From: Cellvibrio sp. KY-YJ-3
GTDB taxonomy: Bacteria; Pseudomonadota; Gammaproteobacteria; Pseudomonadales; Cellvibrionaceae
Direction of reading: 5' to 3'
DNA: 64,000 bases
Assembly (NCBI RefSeq): GCF_008806955.1
Contig: NZ_CP031727.1
Coordinates: forward strand, 62,001 to 126,000
Shown: one piece after another, positions 24,598 to 31,136 of the stretch
Numbering within the stretch: position 1 is the stretch's first letter
Layout: each line of letters starts with the position of its first letter
Translations under genes and position numbers: made by a program
Notes under the pieces: model-generated
Told to the model about the DNA's origin: nothing
Database searches by the model: none
What the model saw: the letters and a program-made list of their open reading frames with translations, nothing else

Positions 24598-25689
24598 ATG
24601 GGTTTTAACTGCGGCATAGTCGGCCTGCCCAACGTCGGCAAATCAACACTCTTTAATGCATTGACCAATGCCGGTATCAGCGCGGAAAACTTTCCCTTCT
24701 GCACCATCGAACCCAACGCCGGTATCGTAGTAGTGCCCGATCCTCGCCAGGACAAACTCGCTGAAATCGTGAAACCCGAGCGCATTGTTCCCACTACCAT
24801 GGAATTTATCGATATCGCCGGGATTGTCGCGGGCGCATCCAAAGGTGAAGGCCTGGGCAATAAATTCCTCGCTAACATCCGCGAGACCGATGCCATCGCC
24901 CACGTCGTGCGCTGCTTTGATGACGACAACGTGATTCACGTAGCCAACGGCGTAAACCCGGCTGCGGATATTGAAGTTATCAATACTGAACTCGCACTCG
25001 CCGACCTCGAAGCCGTGGATAAAGCCATCAATCGCTACGCCAAATCGGCCAAAGGCGGTGACAAACACGCCATGGCGATCAAAGCGCTGCTGGAAAAAGT
25101 CCAGCCACATTTGAACGAAGCCAAACCGCTGCGCTCCTTCCCGCTCGACAAAGAAGAAGTGGCGATGCTGAAAGAGATCAACCTGCTCACCCTCAAGCCA
25201 ACTATGTATATCGCCAACGTGGCGGAAAATGGTTTTGAAAATAATCCGCATTTGGATGTGGTGCGCAAAATCGCGGAAGAAGAAAAATCTGTCGTAGTGC
25301 CGATTTGCAACAAACTGGAAGCCGATATCGCAGAACTGGAAGGCGACGACAAAAAAGAATTCCTCGCCGAAATGGGCATGGAAGAGCCAGGCCTGAACCG
25401 CGTAATTCGCGCTGGCTACCAGTTACTCGGCCTGCAAACTTACTTCACCGCCGGGGTAAAAGAAGTGCGCGCCTGGACCATTCCTATCGGCGCCACCGCC
25501 CCCCAAGCCGCAGGTGTAATTCACACCGACTTTGAAAAAGGTTTTATCCGCGCCGAAACCATCGCTTACGAAGACTTTGTTCAGTACAAAGGCGAACAGG
25601 GCGCAAAAAACGCCGGTAAGTCACGCAAAGAAGGCAAGGAATACGTAGTAAAAGACGGTGACGTACTGCACTTTTTGTTTAACGTCTAA
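24598..25689 (+). CDS. ychF: Ribosome-associated GTPase/ATPase YchF (Obg family)
   Basis: The 363-residue P-loop protein has G1 [15 protein letters not shown]3 [17 protein letters not shown], an inserted coiled-coil domain (about 130-200) and a C-terminal TGS domain ending [17 protein letters not shown] and [12 protein letters not shown]. YchF binds ATP in preference to GTP and is linked to translation and oxidative stress. Length matches E. coli. A terminator follows the stop. Confidence 0.97.
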
Positions 25690-25714
25690 TTCCGTCCAGT
25701 ATTTGCACCCACAA

Positions 25715-25750
25715 AACGCCGCCCCACAACCATCGGGCGGCGTTTTTTTA
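25715..25750 (+). terminator. Rho-independent terminator after ychF
   Basis: A ten-pair stem (AACGCCGCCC, 25715-25724, with GGGCGGCGTT, 25735-25744) and a ten-base loop run into a T tract. It ends the pth-ychF unit 25 bp after the stop codon. Confidence 0.94.
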
Positions 25751-25820
25751 TGCGCAACACTGGCTATGACATAGCCATAGGGTATCAGCGCAAGTGGGTA
25801 CATGATTGGAGAGTATAAGA

Positions 25821-25844
25821 AAGATGATTTAGGCGAAGTATAAT
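25821..25844 (+). promoter_or_regulatory. Candidate promoter of the GGDEF gene with a 16-bp motif shared elsewhere
   Basis: A perfect -10 hexamer TATAAT (25839-25844) lies about 40 bp before the diguanylate cyclase ATG. Just upstream is AAGATGATTTAGGCGA (25821-25836), which occurs again identically and on the same strand at 61348-61363 upstream of another gene. No good -35 TTGACA was found at normal spacing, so an activator or alternative sigma factor could be involved. That is inference. Confidence 0.4.
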
Positions 25845-25884
25845 AACTCTCACCTCACAGTCCTTACGAATAGCAGGGCACATC

Positions 25885-27033
25885 ATGGCGCTGCTCGACA
25901 CGGTCAATGTCATCGGCTCGACCATCTATTTTGTGTTTGTGATATTACTGGCATGGTTGAGCACGATTCCGCGCACCAGCCCCGGCGCTGGTTGCTGGGC
26001 TATTGCCATTTTATTTGGCATGAGCGCTCGCCTCAGCCTTCTATTACTTCCGCAACTACTGCCAGCAGAAAATATCGATCACATTTATGCATTTTTTATC
26101 TTGCTGGAAAAATGTTTTTTATTAATTGGCGCATTTCAATTTCTAAACCTTCGCCATTTAATACGTCCTTATTTGTTGTTTATTGCGTGCGGATTTTTGT
26201 GGCTAGCAATCACTTTTTTAGCAGAATCAAACCGTATTTTATTTTCGCTAGGCTTTGGCATTATTAACGCTGCCGCATTATTTTTACTCGCCTATATTTG
26301 TTATCGCGAGCGCGACAATATTCCACACCGCATTATGAACATCACCAGTATTATTTGTTTGCTGCTGGGTATTCACTGGCTCACTTACCCCCTGTTACGC
26401 TTTACCGACTTCTGGCAAGTGCCTGGTTTTTTATTGGGCACCACACTGGTACTACTGGAATACCTGTGTTTAATTTCAGCGGTACTACTGCAATTTCAAA
26501 AACGCTTATTGGAGGCAGAGCGCAACGCGCTTGAACTCGCGTATCACGATCCACTCACCGGCTTGAACAACCAGCGCTACATGACCACCCTGTTTGAACA
26601 AGCATTAGTTCTCGCCCTCCGCCCGCATCAAATGCTCGCGGTTTTTTACATTGATCTGGATAACTTCAAACCGATTAACGACAGCGCCGGTCATCACGTC
26701 GGCGACGAAGTATTAAAAGTTATCGCCAAACGTTTAGTCGAACACACCCGCAGCACCGATATTTGCGCCCGCATGGGCGGCGACGAATTTGTGGTTATCG
26801 CCACTCAATTGGAAACCGAAGAGCAAGTCAAACAAGTCGCCAACAAAATCCTCCAACAATGCTGCACGCCGGTGGAAATCAATAAAAACCACTACCACCT
26901 GGGCGCCAGCATCGGCATCAGCATCTACCCCCAACACGGCAATGACCTGGCTCAACTATTACAAAATGCCGACGACGCGATGTACCAAGTGAAAAAAAAT
27001 GGCAAAAGTGGGTTTCAGGTTTTTGATGGGTGA
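25885..27033 (+). CDS. Membrane-bound diguanylate cyclase (GGDEF domain)
   Basis: The 382-residue protein has about seven hydrophobic helices in its first 200 residues, a short coiled linker (KRLLEAERNALELAYHDPLT) and a GGDEF domain. The active-site loop is GGDEF at residues 298-302 (ARMGGDEFVVI). An RxxD inhibitory site (RSTD) sits five residues before it, so product inhibition is expected. It should make c-di-GMP from two GTP in response to a signal sensed in the membrane. The signal is unknown. The gene has its own promoter region after the ychF terminator. Confidence 0.92.
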   Translation: MALLDTVNVIGSTIYFVFVILLAWLSTIPRTSPGAGCWAIAILFGMSARLSLLLLPQLLPAENIDHIYAFFILLEKCFLLIGAFQFLNLRHLIRPYLLFIACGFLWLAITFLAESNRILFSLGFGIINAAALFLLAYICYRERDNIPHRIMNITSIICLLLGIHWLTYPLLRFTDFWQVPGFLLGTTLVLLEYLCLISAVLLQFQKRLLEAERNALELAYHDPLTGLNNQRYMTTLFEQALVLALRPHQMLAVFYIDLDNFKPINDSAGHHVGDEVLKVIAKRLVEHTRSTDICARMGGDEFVVIATQLETEEQVKQVANKILQQCCTPVEINKNHYHLGASIGISIYPQHGNDLAQLLQNADDAMYQVKKNGKSGFQVFDG

Positions 27034-27156
27034 GTAATGTCGCGTAATTCCCCTTTCATAAGCTTTAATGATAATCTTATCGCGCTCAAACATTGACCGT
27101 AGGGTGCGCCAAGCGCAGTAACCCGCCGCCTCATCAGTAGGTGGCAAGGAGTCCAA

Positions 27157-27423
27157 ATGCGTAGACCCATCCTGTTGCTGATCATCATGGCAATCGCCTA
27201 TTCCCAAAGCGAAATCATGTCGCCAGACATCATCAAAGGTGTGATGTTTCCCCTGCTATTTTCTGCCGCATTATTGATATTGCTTATCTGGCTTATACGT
27301 CTATCTCATAGTAATCGCAGGGGCGATGGGGGATCGGGGGATTCAGGTGGTGGTTTTTACTCAAGTGGAAAAAGTAATGATAGGGATTTGGGAGACGGTG
27401 GTGGGGATGGTGGCGGAGATTAA
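27157..27423 (+). CDS. Small membrane protein with Gly/Asp-rich tail
   Basis: The 88-residue protein has two hydrophobic stretches (ILLLIIMAIAYSQS and GVMFPLLFSAALLILLIWLI). It ends in a low-complexity tail of Gly, Asp and Ser repeats (GDGGSGDSGGGF and DGGGDGGGD). AAGGAG sits at ideal spacing before the ATG, which supports real translation. I do not recognise the family; glycine-rich tails like this recur on short membrane proteins of unknown role. Confidence 0.65.
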   Translation: MRRPILLLIIMAIAYSQSEIMSPDIIKGVMFPLLFSAALLILLIWLIRLSHSNRRGDGGSGDSGGGFYSSGKSNDRDLGDGGGDGGGD

Positions 27424-27475
27424 CGCATTTATATAATCACACCACTCAACTTCTCACAGAGAATAACTAGCATCT

Positions 27476-28192
27476 TCACTCAAACAACACATTATTGCCA
27501 AAGTACTCACGAATGAATAACGGAAAAGCACTAAGCACATAAATTTCAGCTGCTCTTTCCATAAGTTCAGATTGCGCAACAAATATTTGCAGTTGGCTTG
27601 GGCAGTCTGGATCCTCTAGGCATGTTATTTTCTGCGATTTAATTAAACTGTAGCGAATTAAGTCCATCCAGTTTTGATGGGATATTTTCCGATAGTCCTG
27701 CGGAATAGCCTGACGTCGTGATTCAGACAATTGCTTGTAAGTCGCACCATCACATTTATTAATTGCTATTTTTAGATCGACAAAATCTGCAAATGTAGCC
27801 ACATCACGCAGCGCTTCGACCATCGGATAACTAATATATAACTTCCCGTGCTCAGTTTCTTCTGTGAACTTCACTAGCATTTGTGCAAGGTTAGGGAGTG
27901 AGAAATGATTATCTTGGGGTTCCATATCAAAAAATAAAAACACCTGCGCTATTTCATCGCGCTCGATGCCAGCCAATACATCTTTATTGGCTGGCACAGT
28001 GGCTGACTCGCGAACCAACTCGACAACATCCAAATCATCATCTTGTTGTAACTCATGTAGTAAATGGTACAGATCATTGCCGTAAGAGCATTTAATAATC
28101 GCTTCCTGTTTAAAAAAATGCTCTTCTACTGATGAAAAATAATGTGGTTCTCGCTTTTCCCCCTCAAAAACACACAATATAGTATTAGCCAT
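27476..28192 (-). CDS. TOPRIM/RloB-like protein, partner of the adjacent ATPase
   Basis: The 238-residue protein begins ILCVFEGEKREPHYF. That resembles the first acidic motif of TOPRIM-type proteins of the RloB/OLD group, with Glu10 as metal ligand. The second acidic motif is VFLFFDMEPQD (Asp89, Glu91, Asp94), followed by LYISYPMVEALRD. The rest is unassigned. Such proteins are candidate nucleases that act with an ATPase encoded next to them. Its start overlaps the end of the ATPase gene by 8 bp, so both are co-translated. The region is more A+T-rich than its neighbours, which suggests horizontal acquisition. The catalytic class is inferred from motifs only; AbiL-, PARIS- or OLD-like membership needs a profile search. 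Confidence 0.7.
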   Translation of the reverse strand: MANTILCVFEGEKREPHYFSSVEEHFFKQEAIIKCSYGNDLYHLLHELQQDDDLDVVELVRESATVPANKDVLAGIERDEIAQVFLFFDMEPQDNHFSLPNLAQMLVKFTEETEHGKLYISYPMVEALRDVATFADFVDLKIAINKCDGATYKQLSESRRQAIPQDYRKISHQNWMDLIRYSLIKSQKITCLEDPDCPSQLQIFVAQSELMERAAEIYVLSAFPLFIREYFGNNVLFE

Positions 28193-29354
28193 TAGTTAAT
28201 CCCTTATATATCTTTTCCAAGTTATGCGCTTTACGAAGCTCCTTATCAACCAAACTGAAAAATGGGTACATACCTGGCTTTTCATGTTTATGATCAGAGC
28301 CAACATTTTTTTGTTGGCTGACATTAGCTCGCACCTCAAAGTAACAATCGGGTCGCAGCAAGTCATTCGACATAATGCCAGTATTGTGGGTAGTTAATAC
28401 AGTTTGGCAATCCTCAAGAGCAGAAAGTTTTTTCACGATTTCTTTAGCCAGTGCGTGGTGATAAAACGCATCAAACTCATCAATGTAAGCAAAGCTCAAC
28501 GCACCTTTTTTCAATTTCAACCACCAGAAATAGAAAACCCCTAAAGATTGGGTGCCAGACGATGCAGCCAGCGAAAATTCCACATTGCGTCCATCAAACA
28601 CAAACTCGATGCGCTCATCATCTTTTGGTCCAGCCTTTTTTAAACGGCATTCAACACCAGACTCGTTGAGAAATGCTTCAAAATCGACCAGATGCCCCGA
28701 GTTAATAATTTCTTTAGATAAACGACTGATTTCAAACTCAACACCAAGGTGCTCAGAACGTTTATTGAGCGTACGAAAAAAGACCATTCCTTTTACGAAG
28801 CTAATCAATTTTTTAAATGCAATCCCCGCCTTAGTATCTTCAAGAATAGCATTTGCACTCAGATACTTGAGCGCAGATATGGGCGAATCAGACAGGTCAT
28901 TTTTTAGATGCTCAGCACCTTGAATAGCATAAGTTGCTAAAGCAGATTTGCGGCGGTCAATACTGATGCAGGTTTCCCCATCGATGTCTAACCGCTCATA
29001 AACAAGCGTACTTACATCCTTTTTTCCATAGGAATAAACAACCTCAACACCGTCGAACTCAAACTGATATTTAAACTCCGCCATATCATTACGGTTGTTT
29101 GCATTTAGATAGTTGCTGGACAAACTACTGAATGAACTATTACTCGACATATCATTTAAATGGCAGGTCAAGTCCAACATAGCCAAACCTAAATTTGATT
29201 TGCCACCACCGTTTAGGCCATAAATGATGGCATGCTTGACGACACCATTTTGAACAGCAAAGGAACTGAACTCGTAATTTTTTGTTGTTCGAAGATCAAA
29301 CTCAAACCAATCCTCGAAATTGCGAAAGTTTTTGATTTGCACGCAAACAAGCAT
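28185..29354 (-). CDS. AAA/ABC-type ATPase of a two-gene defence-like cassette
   Basis: From ATG 29354 the protein has about 389 residues. The N-terminal strand-loop MLVCVQIKNFRNFEDWFEF leads to Walker A GLNGGGKSN (residues 46-54). A long insertion follows. Further on are an SSGTQSLG signature-like motif, Walker B FAYIDEFDAFYHH and the switch histidine in VLTTHNTGIMSN. This is the RecF/SMC-like AAA_15/AAA_21 layout used by RloA, AbiLi, PARIS AriA and OLD-type systems. Start choice: the longer frame would begin with TTG and lacks a ribosome site. The orn terminator lies directly upstream, leaving about 50 bp for a promoter. Codon use and G+C differ visibly from the flanking orn and rsgA. Confidence 0.82.
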   Translation of the reverse strand: MLVCVQIKNFRNFEDWFEFDLRTTKNYEFSSFAVQNGVVKHAIIYGLNGGGKSNLGLAMLDLTCHLNDMSSNSSFSSLSSNYLNANNRNDMAEFKYQFEFDGVEVVYSYGKKDVSTLVYERLDIDGETCISIDRRKSALATYAIQGAEHLKNDLSDSPISALKYLSANAILEDTKAGIAFKKLISFVKGMVFFRTLNKRSEHLGVEFEISRLSKEIINSGHLVDFEAFLNESGVECRLKKAGPKDDERIEFVFDGRNVEFSLAASSGTQSLGVFYFWWLKLKKGALSFAYIDEFDAFYHHALAKEIVKKLSALEDCQTVLTTHNTGIMSNDLLRPDCYFEVRANVSQQKNVGSDHKHEKPGMYPFFSLVDKELRKAHNLEKIYKGLTNG

Positions 29355-29406
29355 GATTTTTCTCACAAGAAAATAGATTGCAAATTGATAATCCAAATCC
29401 TAACAC

Positions 29407-29448
29407 AAAAAAAGGGGTGCCGTAAAAAAATTACGGCACCCCTTTTTA
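29407..29448 (-). terminator. Strong terminator after orn
   Basis: A 15-pair stem (29411-29425 with 29431-29445) encloses a five-base A-rich loop, with T runs on the minus-strand exit. It follows the orn stop by 23 bp and insulates orn from the ATPase gene. The mirror-like flanks mean it could also work on the plus strand. Confidence 0.94.
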
Positions 29449-29470
29449 CAGCTTTAGTGAAATAGAAAAC

Positions 29471-30016
29471 CTACTCCATCTTAAAAAACGTAGCCCGATA
29501 ATGCTGCAACTCTGCAATCGAATCCTTAATATCATCCAACGCTAAATGTGCACCGGATTTTTTCACGCCGGCAATCACATCCGGTCTCCAGCGGCGGGCT
29601 AATTCTTTTACGGTGCTGACATCCAGATTTCGGTAGTGGAAATAATCTTCCAGCTTGGGCATGCCGCGCACTAAAAAGCGGCGGTCCTGGCAGATGGAGT
29701 TGCCGCTGATGGGTGATTTGCCTTTGGGTACCCATTGCTCCAAGAATTTAATGGTCTCGGCTTCGGCTTGTTCAATACTGATTTTACTCTCGCGCACGCG
29801 CTGGGTAAGGCCGGATTTACCGTGTTGGTTGGTGTTCCATTCATCCATATTTAACATGATGCTGTCAGGCTGATGGATGGCGAATACGGGGCCTTCGGCG
29901 AGGATGTTGAGATCGGCGTCGGTGACGATGGTGGCGATTTCGATAATCACGTCGGTATCCGGGTTGAGGCCGGTCATTTCCAGATCGATCCAGATCAGGT
30001 TGTTTTCATTCAGCAT
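29471..30016 (-). CDS. orn: Oligoribonuclease
   Basis: The 181-residue DEDDh exonuclease degrades 2-mer RNAs, including pGpG left from c-di-GMP turnover, which fits the c-di-GMP enzymes nearby. Motifs are [11 protein letters not shown] (Asp and Glu ligands), [11 protein letters not shown] and the [11 protein letters not shown] end with H-x4-D. The start is ATG 30016 with GAGGAA upstream; the longer frame is not conserved. It is divergent from rsgA, the common gammaproteobacterial arrangement. Confidence 0.96.
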
Positions 30017-30116
30017 GGGTTTTTCCTCGGTAAATAGGGCACAATTGCCGCGCAGCTTAAAGTAATAAATCAGTCTAGCCAAACATCACCCACCTCACAG
30101 GCAAGTTCACCAACGC

Positions 30117-31136
30117 ATGACCAAACGCAAATTGACTCGCCGCCAGCAATGGCGCATCGACAAAATCCAGGACGAACGCACCGCCCGCGTGGCGAAACGC
30201 GACAAAGTCACCGATGAACAAATGCACGAGAACGATTTGGGGCCTGAGCAGCTGGGTTTGATCATCACCCACTACGGCACCCAAGTGGTGGTAGAGGCAA
30301 CTGAAGGTGAACAAGCGGGGCAGCACCAGCGCTGCCATTTCCGCAGTAACCTCGGCTCTTTAGTGACCGGCGACAGAGTGGTATGGCGCACCGGTAACCC
30401 TATGGGTGTGGTGGTGGCGGTAATGCCGCGCGATTCCGCACTGCAACGCCCCGACCCGCACGGCGATATGAAAACCGTGGCCGCCAATATCGATCGCATT
30501 ATGATTGTGGTCGCCCCCTACCCCGAACCCCACGCGAATTTGATTGACCGCTATCTGGTCGCCGCCAATGCCATCGATATAGAACCGGTGCTAGTGATCA
30601 ATAAAATCGACCGCATCGATGACAGCACCCGCGAAAAAGTCACTTATTTGGAAACCACTTATCGCAAGCTGGGTTATACGGTGTTGATGGTATCCACCAA
30701 AACCGAACATGGGCTGGATGAACTGCGCAATTACCTTGCCGATTACACCAGCGTATTTGTGGGGCAATCAGGTGTGGGTAAATCGTCGCTGGTGAATGCG
30801 CTGTTGCCAGAATCGAACTTACGCGTGGGTGATTTGTCGGAAAGACAACAGGGAACCCATACCACCACCAGCGCCACACTCTTGCACTTCCCCGGTGGCG
30901 GCCATTTGATCGATTCGCCCGGTATCCGCGAATTTGGTTTGTGGCATATGGAGGAAGATGAGGTGCTGGAAGGGTTTATTGAGTTCAAGCCTTTTATCGG
31001 CCACTGTAAATTCCGCGATTGCTCGCACCGCCACGAACCTGGCTGCGCGATTTTAAAGGCGCTGGAAGATGGCACAATCAGTGCAACACGTATGGATTCA
31101 TACCGGTATATTTTGCGTACATTAAACGAGAATTAA
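30117..31136 (+). CDS. rsgA: Small-subunit ribosome biogenesis GTPase RsgA
   Basis: The 339-residue circularly permuted GTPase has an N-terminal OB-fold domain. The GTPase motifs come in the order G4 (NKIDRID), G1 ([15 protein letters not shown]) and G3 ([11 protein letters not shown]). A C-terminal zinc knuckle has [14 protein letters not shown]. It helps late 30S maturation and releases RbfA. The N-terminal extension of about 40 basic residues ([18 protein letters not shown]) is typical. It is divergent from orn. Confidence 0.96.

What the first reader, a model, noticed from the sequence alone, without database searches (positions are those of the whole stretch)
27476..29354. Two-gene TOPRIM-like plus ATPase cassette wedged beside orn: candidate anti-phage system
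Seen: an ATPase of RecF/SMC style (Walker A GLNGGGKSN, Walker B FAYIDEFDAF, TTHNTG switch) overlaps by 8 bp the gene of a 238-residue protein with two acidic motifs (FEGEKREP, FFDMEPQD). The pair is visibly A+T-richer than its neighbours and sits directly behind a strong orn terminator. Known: AbiL, RloA/RloB, PARIS (AriA/AriB), Gabija and OLD systems join such an ATPase with a TOPRIM-type nuclease. Inference: this is a member or an undescribed variant of that group. The DMEPQD motif differs from a plain DxD.
Basis: partly seen in the sequence, partly recalled or inferred. Interest (0 to 1): 0.75.

Follow-up and report, generated by a model that had tools for sequence, protein, structure and literature searches.

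The report
ATPase plus RloB-like nuclease defence pair
Two overlapping genes beside a housekeeping RNase gene form a mobile pair, an ATPase and a probable nuclease, of a kind already listed as a candidate anti-phage system but not, as far as I could find, tested; it looks like a member of a known kind rather than something new.

Summary
At 27476-29354 (- strand) a RecF/SMC-type ATPase of 389 aa (A) overlaps by 8 nt a 238-aa protein (B); the pair has 39.8% G+C against 50.5% for the window and lies behind the orn terminator. A and B match PADLOC's catalogued candidate PDC-M12 (1.8e-141 and 7.7e-73), so the pair is not undescribed; no paper in the library holds that name. B belongs to the RloB superfamily (profile comparison 90-92%), and RloB has been linked to TOPRIM nucleases in print. 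It is not a PARIS, Gabija or AbiL member by the profiles tested. DMEPQD is the family's DxD site with the second D as E, as in 11 of 78 aligned proteins, this one included. The pair is mobile: 3 of 21 genomes of the genus have it, here behind orn; relatives sit on 4-kb enterobacterial plasmids and in Vibrio filamentous phages. In two related genomes the same slot holds an ABC-3C set or a TIR protein. Most likely it is a two-gene abortive-infection system in which A restrains and triggers the nuclease B. Anti-phage activity, TOPRIM fold and nuclease target were not shown.

The parts
28185..29354 (-). gene A: AAA_21/RecF-SMC-type ATPase, 389 aa; PADLOC PDC-M12A; proposed sensor and restrainer
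   Evidence: Pfam AAA_21 1.1e-15; PDC-M12A 1.8e-141, AbiLi 2e-32; AlphaFold2 model mean pLDDT 88.6, pTM 0.88; Foldseek matches to SMC/Rad50 heads and retron PtuA ATPases, best E 4.8e-11
27476..28192 (-). gene B: RloB-superfamily protein, 238 aa; PADLOC PDC-M12B; proposed nuclease effector
   Evidence: PDC-M12B 7.7e-73; Pfam RloB 4.5e-6, 27.4 bits, below the 31.5-bit cut-off; profile comparison with RloB 92.4% and 90.2%; AlphaFold2 model mean pLDDT 93.7, pTM 0.91
28185..28192 (-). 8-nt overlap of A stop and B start (translational coupling inferred)
   Evidence: the same 8-nt overlap in 42 of 82 full-length relatives, 11 nt in 19
27911..27928 (-). codons of D89-D94 of B (DMEPQD): the family's DxD site as DxE, D89 at 27926-27928 and E91 at 27920-27922
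   Evidence: position 89 is D in 78 of 78, position 91 is D in 67 and E in 11 of 78 aligned proteins; letters checked
29409..29447 (-). intrinsic terminator of orn, upstream border of the pair
   Evidence: 17-bp perfect stem, 5-nt loop, T tail
27424..29470 (.). variable slot between orn and the 88-aa ORF; its content differs in each of five related genomes that keep both flanks
   Evidence: homology to the relatives ends at the orn stop and resumes at about 27423

Best explanation
The pair is a member of the catalogued candidate defence type PDC-M12, acquired horizontally into a cargo slot behind orn. A is an SMC/Rad50-type ATPase that is expected to form oligomers, to hold B inactive and to sense something made or changed by an infecting phage. 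On that signal B is freed or activated; B is an RloB-superfamily, probably TOPRIM-type, metal-dependent nuclease whose site includes E10, D89 and E91. It then cuts RNA (tRNA by analogy with AriB) or DNA and stops the cell before phage can multiply. Shown here by computation: the gene pair, its conservation as a pair, the conserved acidic positions, the RloB kinship of B, and mobility. Inferred: anti-phage function, restraint of B by A, nuclease activity and target.
For: Both genes match PDC-M12 strongly. Pairing is strict: B lies next to A in 92 of 97 loci found by searching with A alone; the same 14 of 72,556 plasmid records and the same 3 of 50,697 phage records were found whether A or B was the query. 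No third gene recurs: among 125 neighbours from 77 of the 80 genome loci the commonest Pfam family occurs in 4, while some neighbours match defence models (DpdF 2, PsyrT 2, Cas1 1; 25 of 110 families were shown). Patchy distribution: 8 of 144 genomes of the family, 3 of 21 of the genus, the window's own included. Carriers are mobile: Escherichia and Raoultella plasmids of 4.0-4.4 kb, Acinetobacter and Pectobacterium plasmids, Vibrio filamentous phages after the gene-1 gene; 9 of 5,426 E. coli genomes, all 13 places on plasmids. The same slot behind orn holds an ABC-3C set (DUF2326 9.5e-20, CTD12 1.3e-10) in one relative and a TIR protein (5.9e-18) in another. B aligns to RloB over the EG, DxD and PxxE motifs. 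In print: an RloB-class TOPRIM_OLD toxin paired with an AAA antitoxin is reported as a validated toxin-antitoxin pair in E. coli, and AbiL is cited as abortive infection (PMC10440598, passages and part 1 of section 11 read); AriA sequesters the tRNase AriB until a phage protein frees it (PMC12409363, introduction and passages read).
Against: No phage test exists here. Foldseek of the confident B model found no PDB match at E <= 0.001 and no TOPRIM protein in the 50 rows shown of 767. Profile searches of B against PDB sequences gave no TOPRIM hit, and direct profile comparison with OLD TOPRIM domains gave 0.1%. 24 of 78 B relatives match Pfam RloB at 0.01 and one matches Pfam Toprim, at only 0.0044. 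Two other PADLOC candidates, PDC-M63AB and PDC-S04, showed no activity when tested in their host (PMC12409345, passages), and an AAA pair from Acinetobacter, with a different toxin, gave no hit in the BASEL screen (PMC10440598). A occurs without any detectable B in four loci whose contigs run on by 1.1-6.0 kb (L097, L112, L150, L157).
Confidence: 0.7

Rival explanations
1. It is mainly a toxin-antitoxin or addiction module for plasmid and phage maintenance: B is the toxin, A the antidote, and phage defence is secondary or absent.
For: Carriage on 4-kb plasmids and filamentous phages; published toxin and antidote behaviour of an RloB-class pair (PMC10440598); where one gene is missing or broken in the A-led set of 97 it is mostly B: no B in 5 loci and only partial B in 10, of which L105 and L102 are cut by the contig end, against A split in 2, L141 and L168.
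Against: The set was chosen by A matches, so broken A genes are under-counted. Chromosomal copies are widespread and patchy, beside varied genes including defence genes. For PARIS, single deletions were reported as non-toxic, which its authors took to exclude a toxin-antitoxin system (PMC9122126, passage).
Confidence: 0.15
2. It acts as a DNA-degrading ATPase-nuclease complex, in the manner of Gabija or OLD, with A as a motor or clamp on DNA and B cutting phage DNA directly, without growth arrest.
For: A resembles Rad50 and SMC heads, the DNA-clamping ATPases.
Against: B does not align to OLD TOPRIM domains (0.1%); A and B are separate and A has no TOPRIM match; A's best matches to named systems are AbiLi and AriA, whose systems are described as abortive or growth-arresting.
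Confidence: 0.12
3. It is a chromosomal repair or housekeeping pair unrelated to phage.
For: RecF/SMC-type ATPase; position beside housekeeping genes.
Against: No B match in 136 of 144 family genomes, some of them incomplete; foreign composition; mobile carriers.
Confidence: 0.03

Closest known systems
PADLOC candidate PDC-M12 (PDC-M12A + PDC-M12B)
   Same: both proteins match over nearly full length (1.8e-141 and 7.7e-73), genes adjacent and overlapping
   Different: the window copy and 10 other proteins of the 78 aligned carry DxE where 67 carry DxD
AbiL (AbiLi + AbiLii) and RloA/RloB pairs
   Same: ATPase followed by an RloB-type gene; A matches AbiLi at 2e-32; shared EG.KTEP-like, DxD or DxE and PxxE motifs
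   Different: B has no AbiLii match at E up to 10; it scores below the Pfam RloB cut-off, and only about its first 130 residues align; four canonical RloB proteins of the same bacterial family score 2.8e-21 or better on AbiLii and at best 4.6e-5 on PDC-M12B
PARIS (AriA + AriB)
   Same: A matches AriA at 5.9e-17; two-gene ATPase plus small effector layout
   Different: no DUF4435 domain, which the authors' detection rule requires (PMC9122126, passage; not found)
Septu / retron PtuA ATPase
   Same: A model resembles PtuA chains in Foldseek
   Different: the partner is RloB-like, not the HNH nuclease that PMC10440598 names as PtuB

Membership tests
PDC-M12 (PADLOC) | A matches PDC-M12A over most of its length | tested here: met
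   1.8e-141, residues 1-386 to profile 1-365 of 369
PDC-M12 (PADLOC) | B matches PDC-M12B over most of its length | tested here: met
   7.7e-73, residues 1-236 to profile 6-243 of 251
PDC-M12 (PADLOC) | the two genes are adjacent | tested here: met
   8-nt overlap; that PADLOC requires adjacency is my assumption
RloB (Pfam PF13707) | score above the curated cut-off of 31.5 bits | tested here: not met
   27.4 bits, E 4.5e-6
RloB superfamily | profile similarity over the EG, DxD and PxxE motifs | tested here: met
   92.4% with 8 and 90.2% with 17 RloB sequences; seven unrelated window proteins, each as a single sequence, at 0.1-0.3%
PARIS | AAA_15 or AAA_21 ATPase over the stated score | tested here: met
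   AAA_21 58.9 bits against 27; AAA_15 32.3 against 32
PARIS | DUF4435 partner over 27 bits | tested here: not met
   no DUF4435 match in B or in its genome
AbiL | AbiLi-type ATPase | tested here: met
   2e-32, but PDC-M12A is far stronger
AbiL | AbiLii partner | tested here: not met
   no match in B at E up to 10; 13 of 78 aligned proteins match weakly, best 1.7e-5
Gabija / OLD | ATPase and OLD-type TOPRIM in one protein, or an OLD TOPRIM in the partner | tested here: not met
   A has no TOPRIM match; B against 29 OLD TOPRIM sequences 0.1%; weak GajA profile matches of A (best 0.00023) reflect the shared ATPase
TOPRIM nuclease fold | E plus DxD acidic centre on a parallel alpha/beta core (recalled definition) | tested here: inconclusive
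abortive-infection anti-phage system | phage protection with growth arrest | not testable with these tools
   needs plating and infection assays

The most novel reading that the evidence does not exclude
PDC-M12 is a separate, unvalidated branch of the ATPase plus RloB/TOPRIM defence systems, with its own effector C-terminal half and target, small enough to ride on 4-kb plasmids and filamentous phages; and in this genus the interval behind orn is an unreported exchange slot for small defence cassettes.
Probability: 0.5. Interest if true: 0.5.

Novelty: new member of a known kind. Interest (0 to 1): 0.38.

Why it matters
If the pair is active, it would give a very compact two-gene defence unit (about 1.9 kb) that natural 4-kb plasmids and 10-kb filamentous phages already carry, and an entry to the RloB effectors, whose target is not stated in the passages I read. 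The slot behind orn would be a place to look for further small defence genes in this genus.

Tried and rejected
PARIS, AbiL, Gabija/OLD and Septu were considered and not adopted as families, for the failed profile features listed above. An attachment-site origin was looked for: in 25600-30200 seven direct-repeat families of 14-28 nt were listed, all imperfect and none at the two borders of the slot; one 16-nt pair (88%, 27400-27415 and 29921-29936) happens to bracket the pair, but its second copy lies inside orn. Site-specific integration is therefore not supported. Exchange by recombination between the conserved flanks is my inference, suggested by a second, partial orn copy (87% identical, L057:9056-9376) before the far flank in G020.

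The DMEPQD motif as a sign of a new catalytic type was rejected: DxE occurs in 11 of 78 aligned proteins, the window's included, and three RloB loci read DRE (L174, L175, L182).

Led nowhere: a single-protein scan of genome contigs with A and of viral contigs with B found no relatives; PDB sequence searches for B gave only chance-like hits; Foldseek of B against viral models gave none at E <= 0.001, the first row being an RloB-like phage protein (E 0.008, probability 0.99, TM 0.44). The DUF4435 comparison used five long proteins, of seven matches, and is a weak test. Paper searches were made; none showed a test of PDC-M12, but the library lacks most subscription journals and holds no bioRxiv preprints as such, and I saw most papers only as listing rows.

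Rows dropped or chosen: A3 holds the window and 77 of 82 full-length B proteins, five left out as near-identical copies; A4 holds the window and 48 of 97 A proteins, chosen by hand; the second RloB set has 17 sequences, with L182 left out because its frame is broken, L230 and L235 because their stretches were short, and L240-L243 not used; the OLD set has 29 of the 30 loci I listed, L214 being short. For the slot, 10 proteins picked by hand and the window were scanned, and eight of 20 fetched stretches were compared.

Full report
Observation. They are A+T-rich: 0.398 G+C against 0.505 for the window, with GC3 of 0.39 and 0.36 against 0.53-0.64 in six neighbouring genes; 292 of 62,122 windows of that size are as low and all overlap the pair. 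The orn terminator, a 17-bp stem at 29409-29447, separates them from orn. No direct repeat sits at the two borders.

Identity. Pfam gives AAA_21 for A (1.1e-15) and a sub-threshold RloB match for B (4.5e-6). PADLOC gives PDC-M12A and PDC-M12B at 1.8e-141 and 7.7e-73. The pair is therefore a member of a catalogued defence candidate. The term PDC-M12 occurs in 0 papers of the library. A wider search for PADLOC candidates listed 14 papers; of these I opened passages of one, PMC12409345, which tested two other candidates and found no defence activity.

Relatives. With B as query, 8 of 144 genomes of the bacterial family have a match, the window's own included, and 3 of 21 of the genus. In the seven others A lies beside B, and no orn was found in the stretches of 5.6-19 kb fetched around them. 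One of the two other genus members, G020, has the pair far from orn; in the other, G032, a draft, another small gene follows orn before the contig ends 535 bp on, so a copy deeper in the slot cannot be ruled out. A class-wide sample gave 2 of 369, again with the window's own. 17 more came from viral contigs. B was detected next to A in 92 of these 97; 82 were full-length and 10 partial. Of the five without B, one (L105) is cut by the contig end, as is one partial copy (L102). The gene overlap is 8 nt in 42 and 11 nt in 19 of 82. Plasmid and phage collections returned the same 14 and the same 3 records for A and for B. Ten of the plasmids (9 Escherichia, 1 Raoultella) are only 4.0-4.4 kb long; in E. 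coli 9 of 5,426 genomes have the pair, always on plasmids. In the three Vibrio filamentous phages the pair follows a gene annotated as gene-1 protein. A study of marine Vibrio prophages describes an accessory locus in filamentous prophages, with defence systems including Paris (PMC11630473, passages); whether this pair is what it calls Paris I did not establish, though the records label A 'Paris_II AAA_21'.

Anatomy of B. In 78 aligned proteins E10, G11, E15, Y42, F88, D89, F109, G116, Y122, P123, M124 and E126 are invariant, and position 91 is D in 67 and E in 11. So DMEPQD is the DxD site in a DxE form. The 11 are the window protein, eight from gamma-proteobacterial records by title (L078-L080, L082-L086), one from a viral contig (L155) and one from a Pontiella MAG (L092); the two closest relatives of A (L073, L074) are not among them. 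Profile comparison aligns residues 3-134 of B with RloB over EG..TE, DxD and PxxE, at 92.4% and 90.2%, while seven unrelated window proteins score 0.1-0.3%. RloB to OLD TOPRIM is weak here (25.5%, E 7.5e-4), and B to OLD TOPRIM is nil (0.1%). PMC10440598 reports an HHpred link of RloB to OLD_TOPRIM (passage). The B model is confident (pLDDT 93.7, pTM 0.91), and its strand and helix order fits an alpha/beta core by my reading, but Foldseek found no PDB match at E <= 0.001 and, among viral models, one fair match, an RloB-like phage protein (E 0.008). I therefore hold 'RloB superfamily' as shown and 'TOPRIM nuclease' as likely but not shown.

Anatomy of A. Walker A, Walker B (DEFDA) and the His switch are conserved in 49 relatives. 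The model (pLDDT 88.6, pTM 0.88) matches Rad50, SMC and retron PtuA ATPases. Among named two-gene systems the best profile matches are AbiLi 2e-32 and AriA 5.9e-17.

The slot. orn has a match in 21 of 21 genomes of the genus, and its downstream region differs widely. I compared the window with eight of the 20 fetched stretches. Five keep both flanks, orn and the 88-aa ORF, with different content between: G023 an ABC-3C-type set (DUF2326 plus CTD12; also PADLOC PDC-M68B 2.2e-56), G019 a TIR protein, G018 a 235-aa protein without a match and two small genes not scanned, G014 a small peptidoglycan-binding-like protein, G020 about 6 kb with methyltransferase and glycosyltransferase-like genes and a second, partial orn (the far flank in G020 is a 54-nt match only). 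Two of five thus hold other defence-associated genes, three do not as far as scanned. Of the other three stretches, two show the orn flank only (L054 ends soon after it) and one lacks the 88-aa ORF but keeps the GGDEF flank. The 88-aa ORF has a match in 8 of 21 genomes, two of them weak.

Neighbours elsewhere. Among 125 neighbours from 77 of 80 genome loci no Pfam family recurs beyond 4 members, so the unit is two genes. Some neighbours match defence models; no control set was run, so enrichment is not claimed.

Mechanism. By analogy with PARIS, where the ATPase AriA holds AriB until a phage protein frees it and AriB cuts tRNA (PMC12409363, introduction), and with an RloB-class toxin neutralised by its AAA partner in E. 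coli (PMC10440598, part 1 of section 11), I judge that A senses infection and controls B, a nuclease that stops the cell. The analogy rests on kinship of A to AriA and AbiLi and of B to RloB; the trigger, the target and the direction of control are inferred.

Verdict. It is a new member of a catalogued candidate type, with anti-phage function still to be tested.

Noticed in passing
27424-29470 and L053, L055, L056, L057, L072: The interval between orn and an 88-aa ORF is a variable slot in this genus; two of five relatives with both flanks hold other defence-associated genes (ABC-3C, TIR).
   Followed up: partly
L057:9056-9376 (G020); G016 contig 11; G026 contig 9: Second, partial matches to orn lie downstream of or apart from the full gene, which hints at exchange by recombination in the orn flank.
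   Followed up: no
L011, L012, L013: Vibrio filamentous phages of about 10 kb carry the pair after the gene-1 gene, with A 50% identical to the window's.
   Followed up: partly
L010 and 9 further plasmid records: Enterobacterial plasmids of 4.0-4.4 kb carry the pair; in L010 it takes about half the length.
   Followed up: partly
L097, L112, L150, L157: The ATPase gene occurs without a detectable B although the contig continues.
   Followed up: no
L014 record NZ_CP155548.1: An Acinetobacter plasmid holds two places that match each gene, so probably two copies of the pair.
   Followed up: no
L017 record NZ_CP084075.1: A Fusobacterium record of 2.1 Mb is listed as a plasmid but has the size of a chromosome; it holds the pair.
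   Followed up: no
L170-L176: Canonical RloB genes occur next to large ATPase genes in other genomes of the same bacterial family, apart from PDC-M12; the four pairs scanned match AbiLi and AbiLii.
   Followed up: partly
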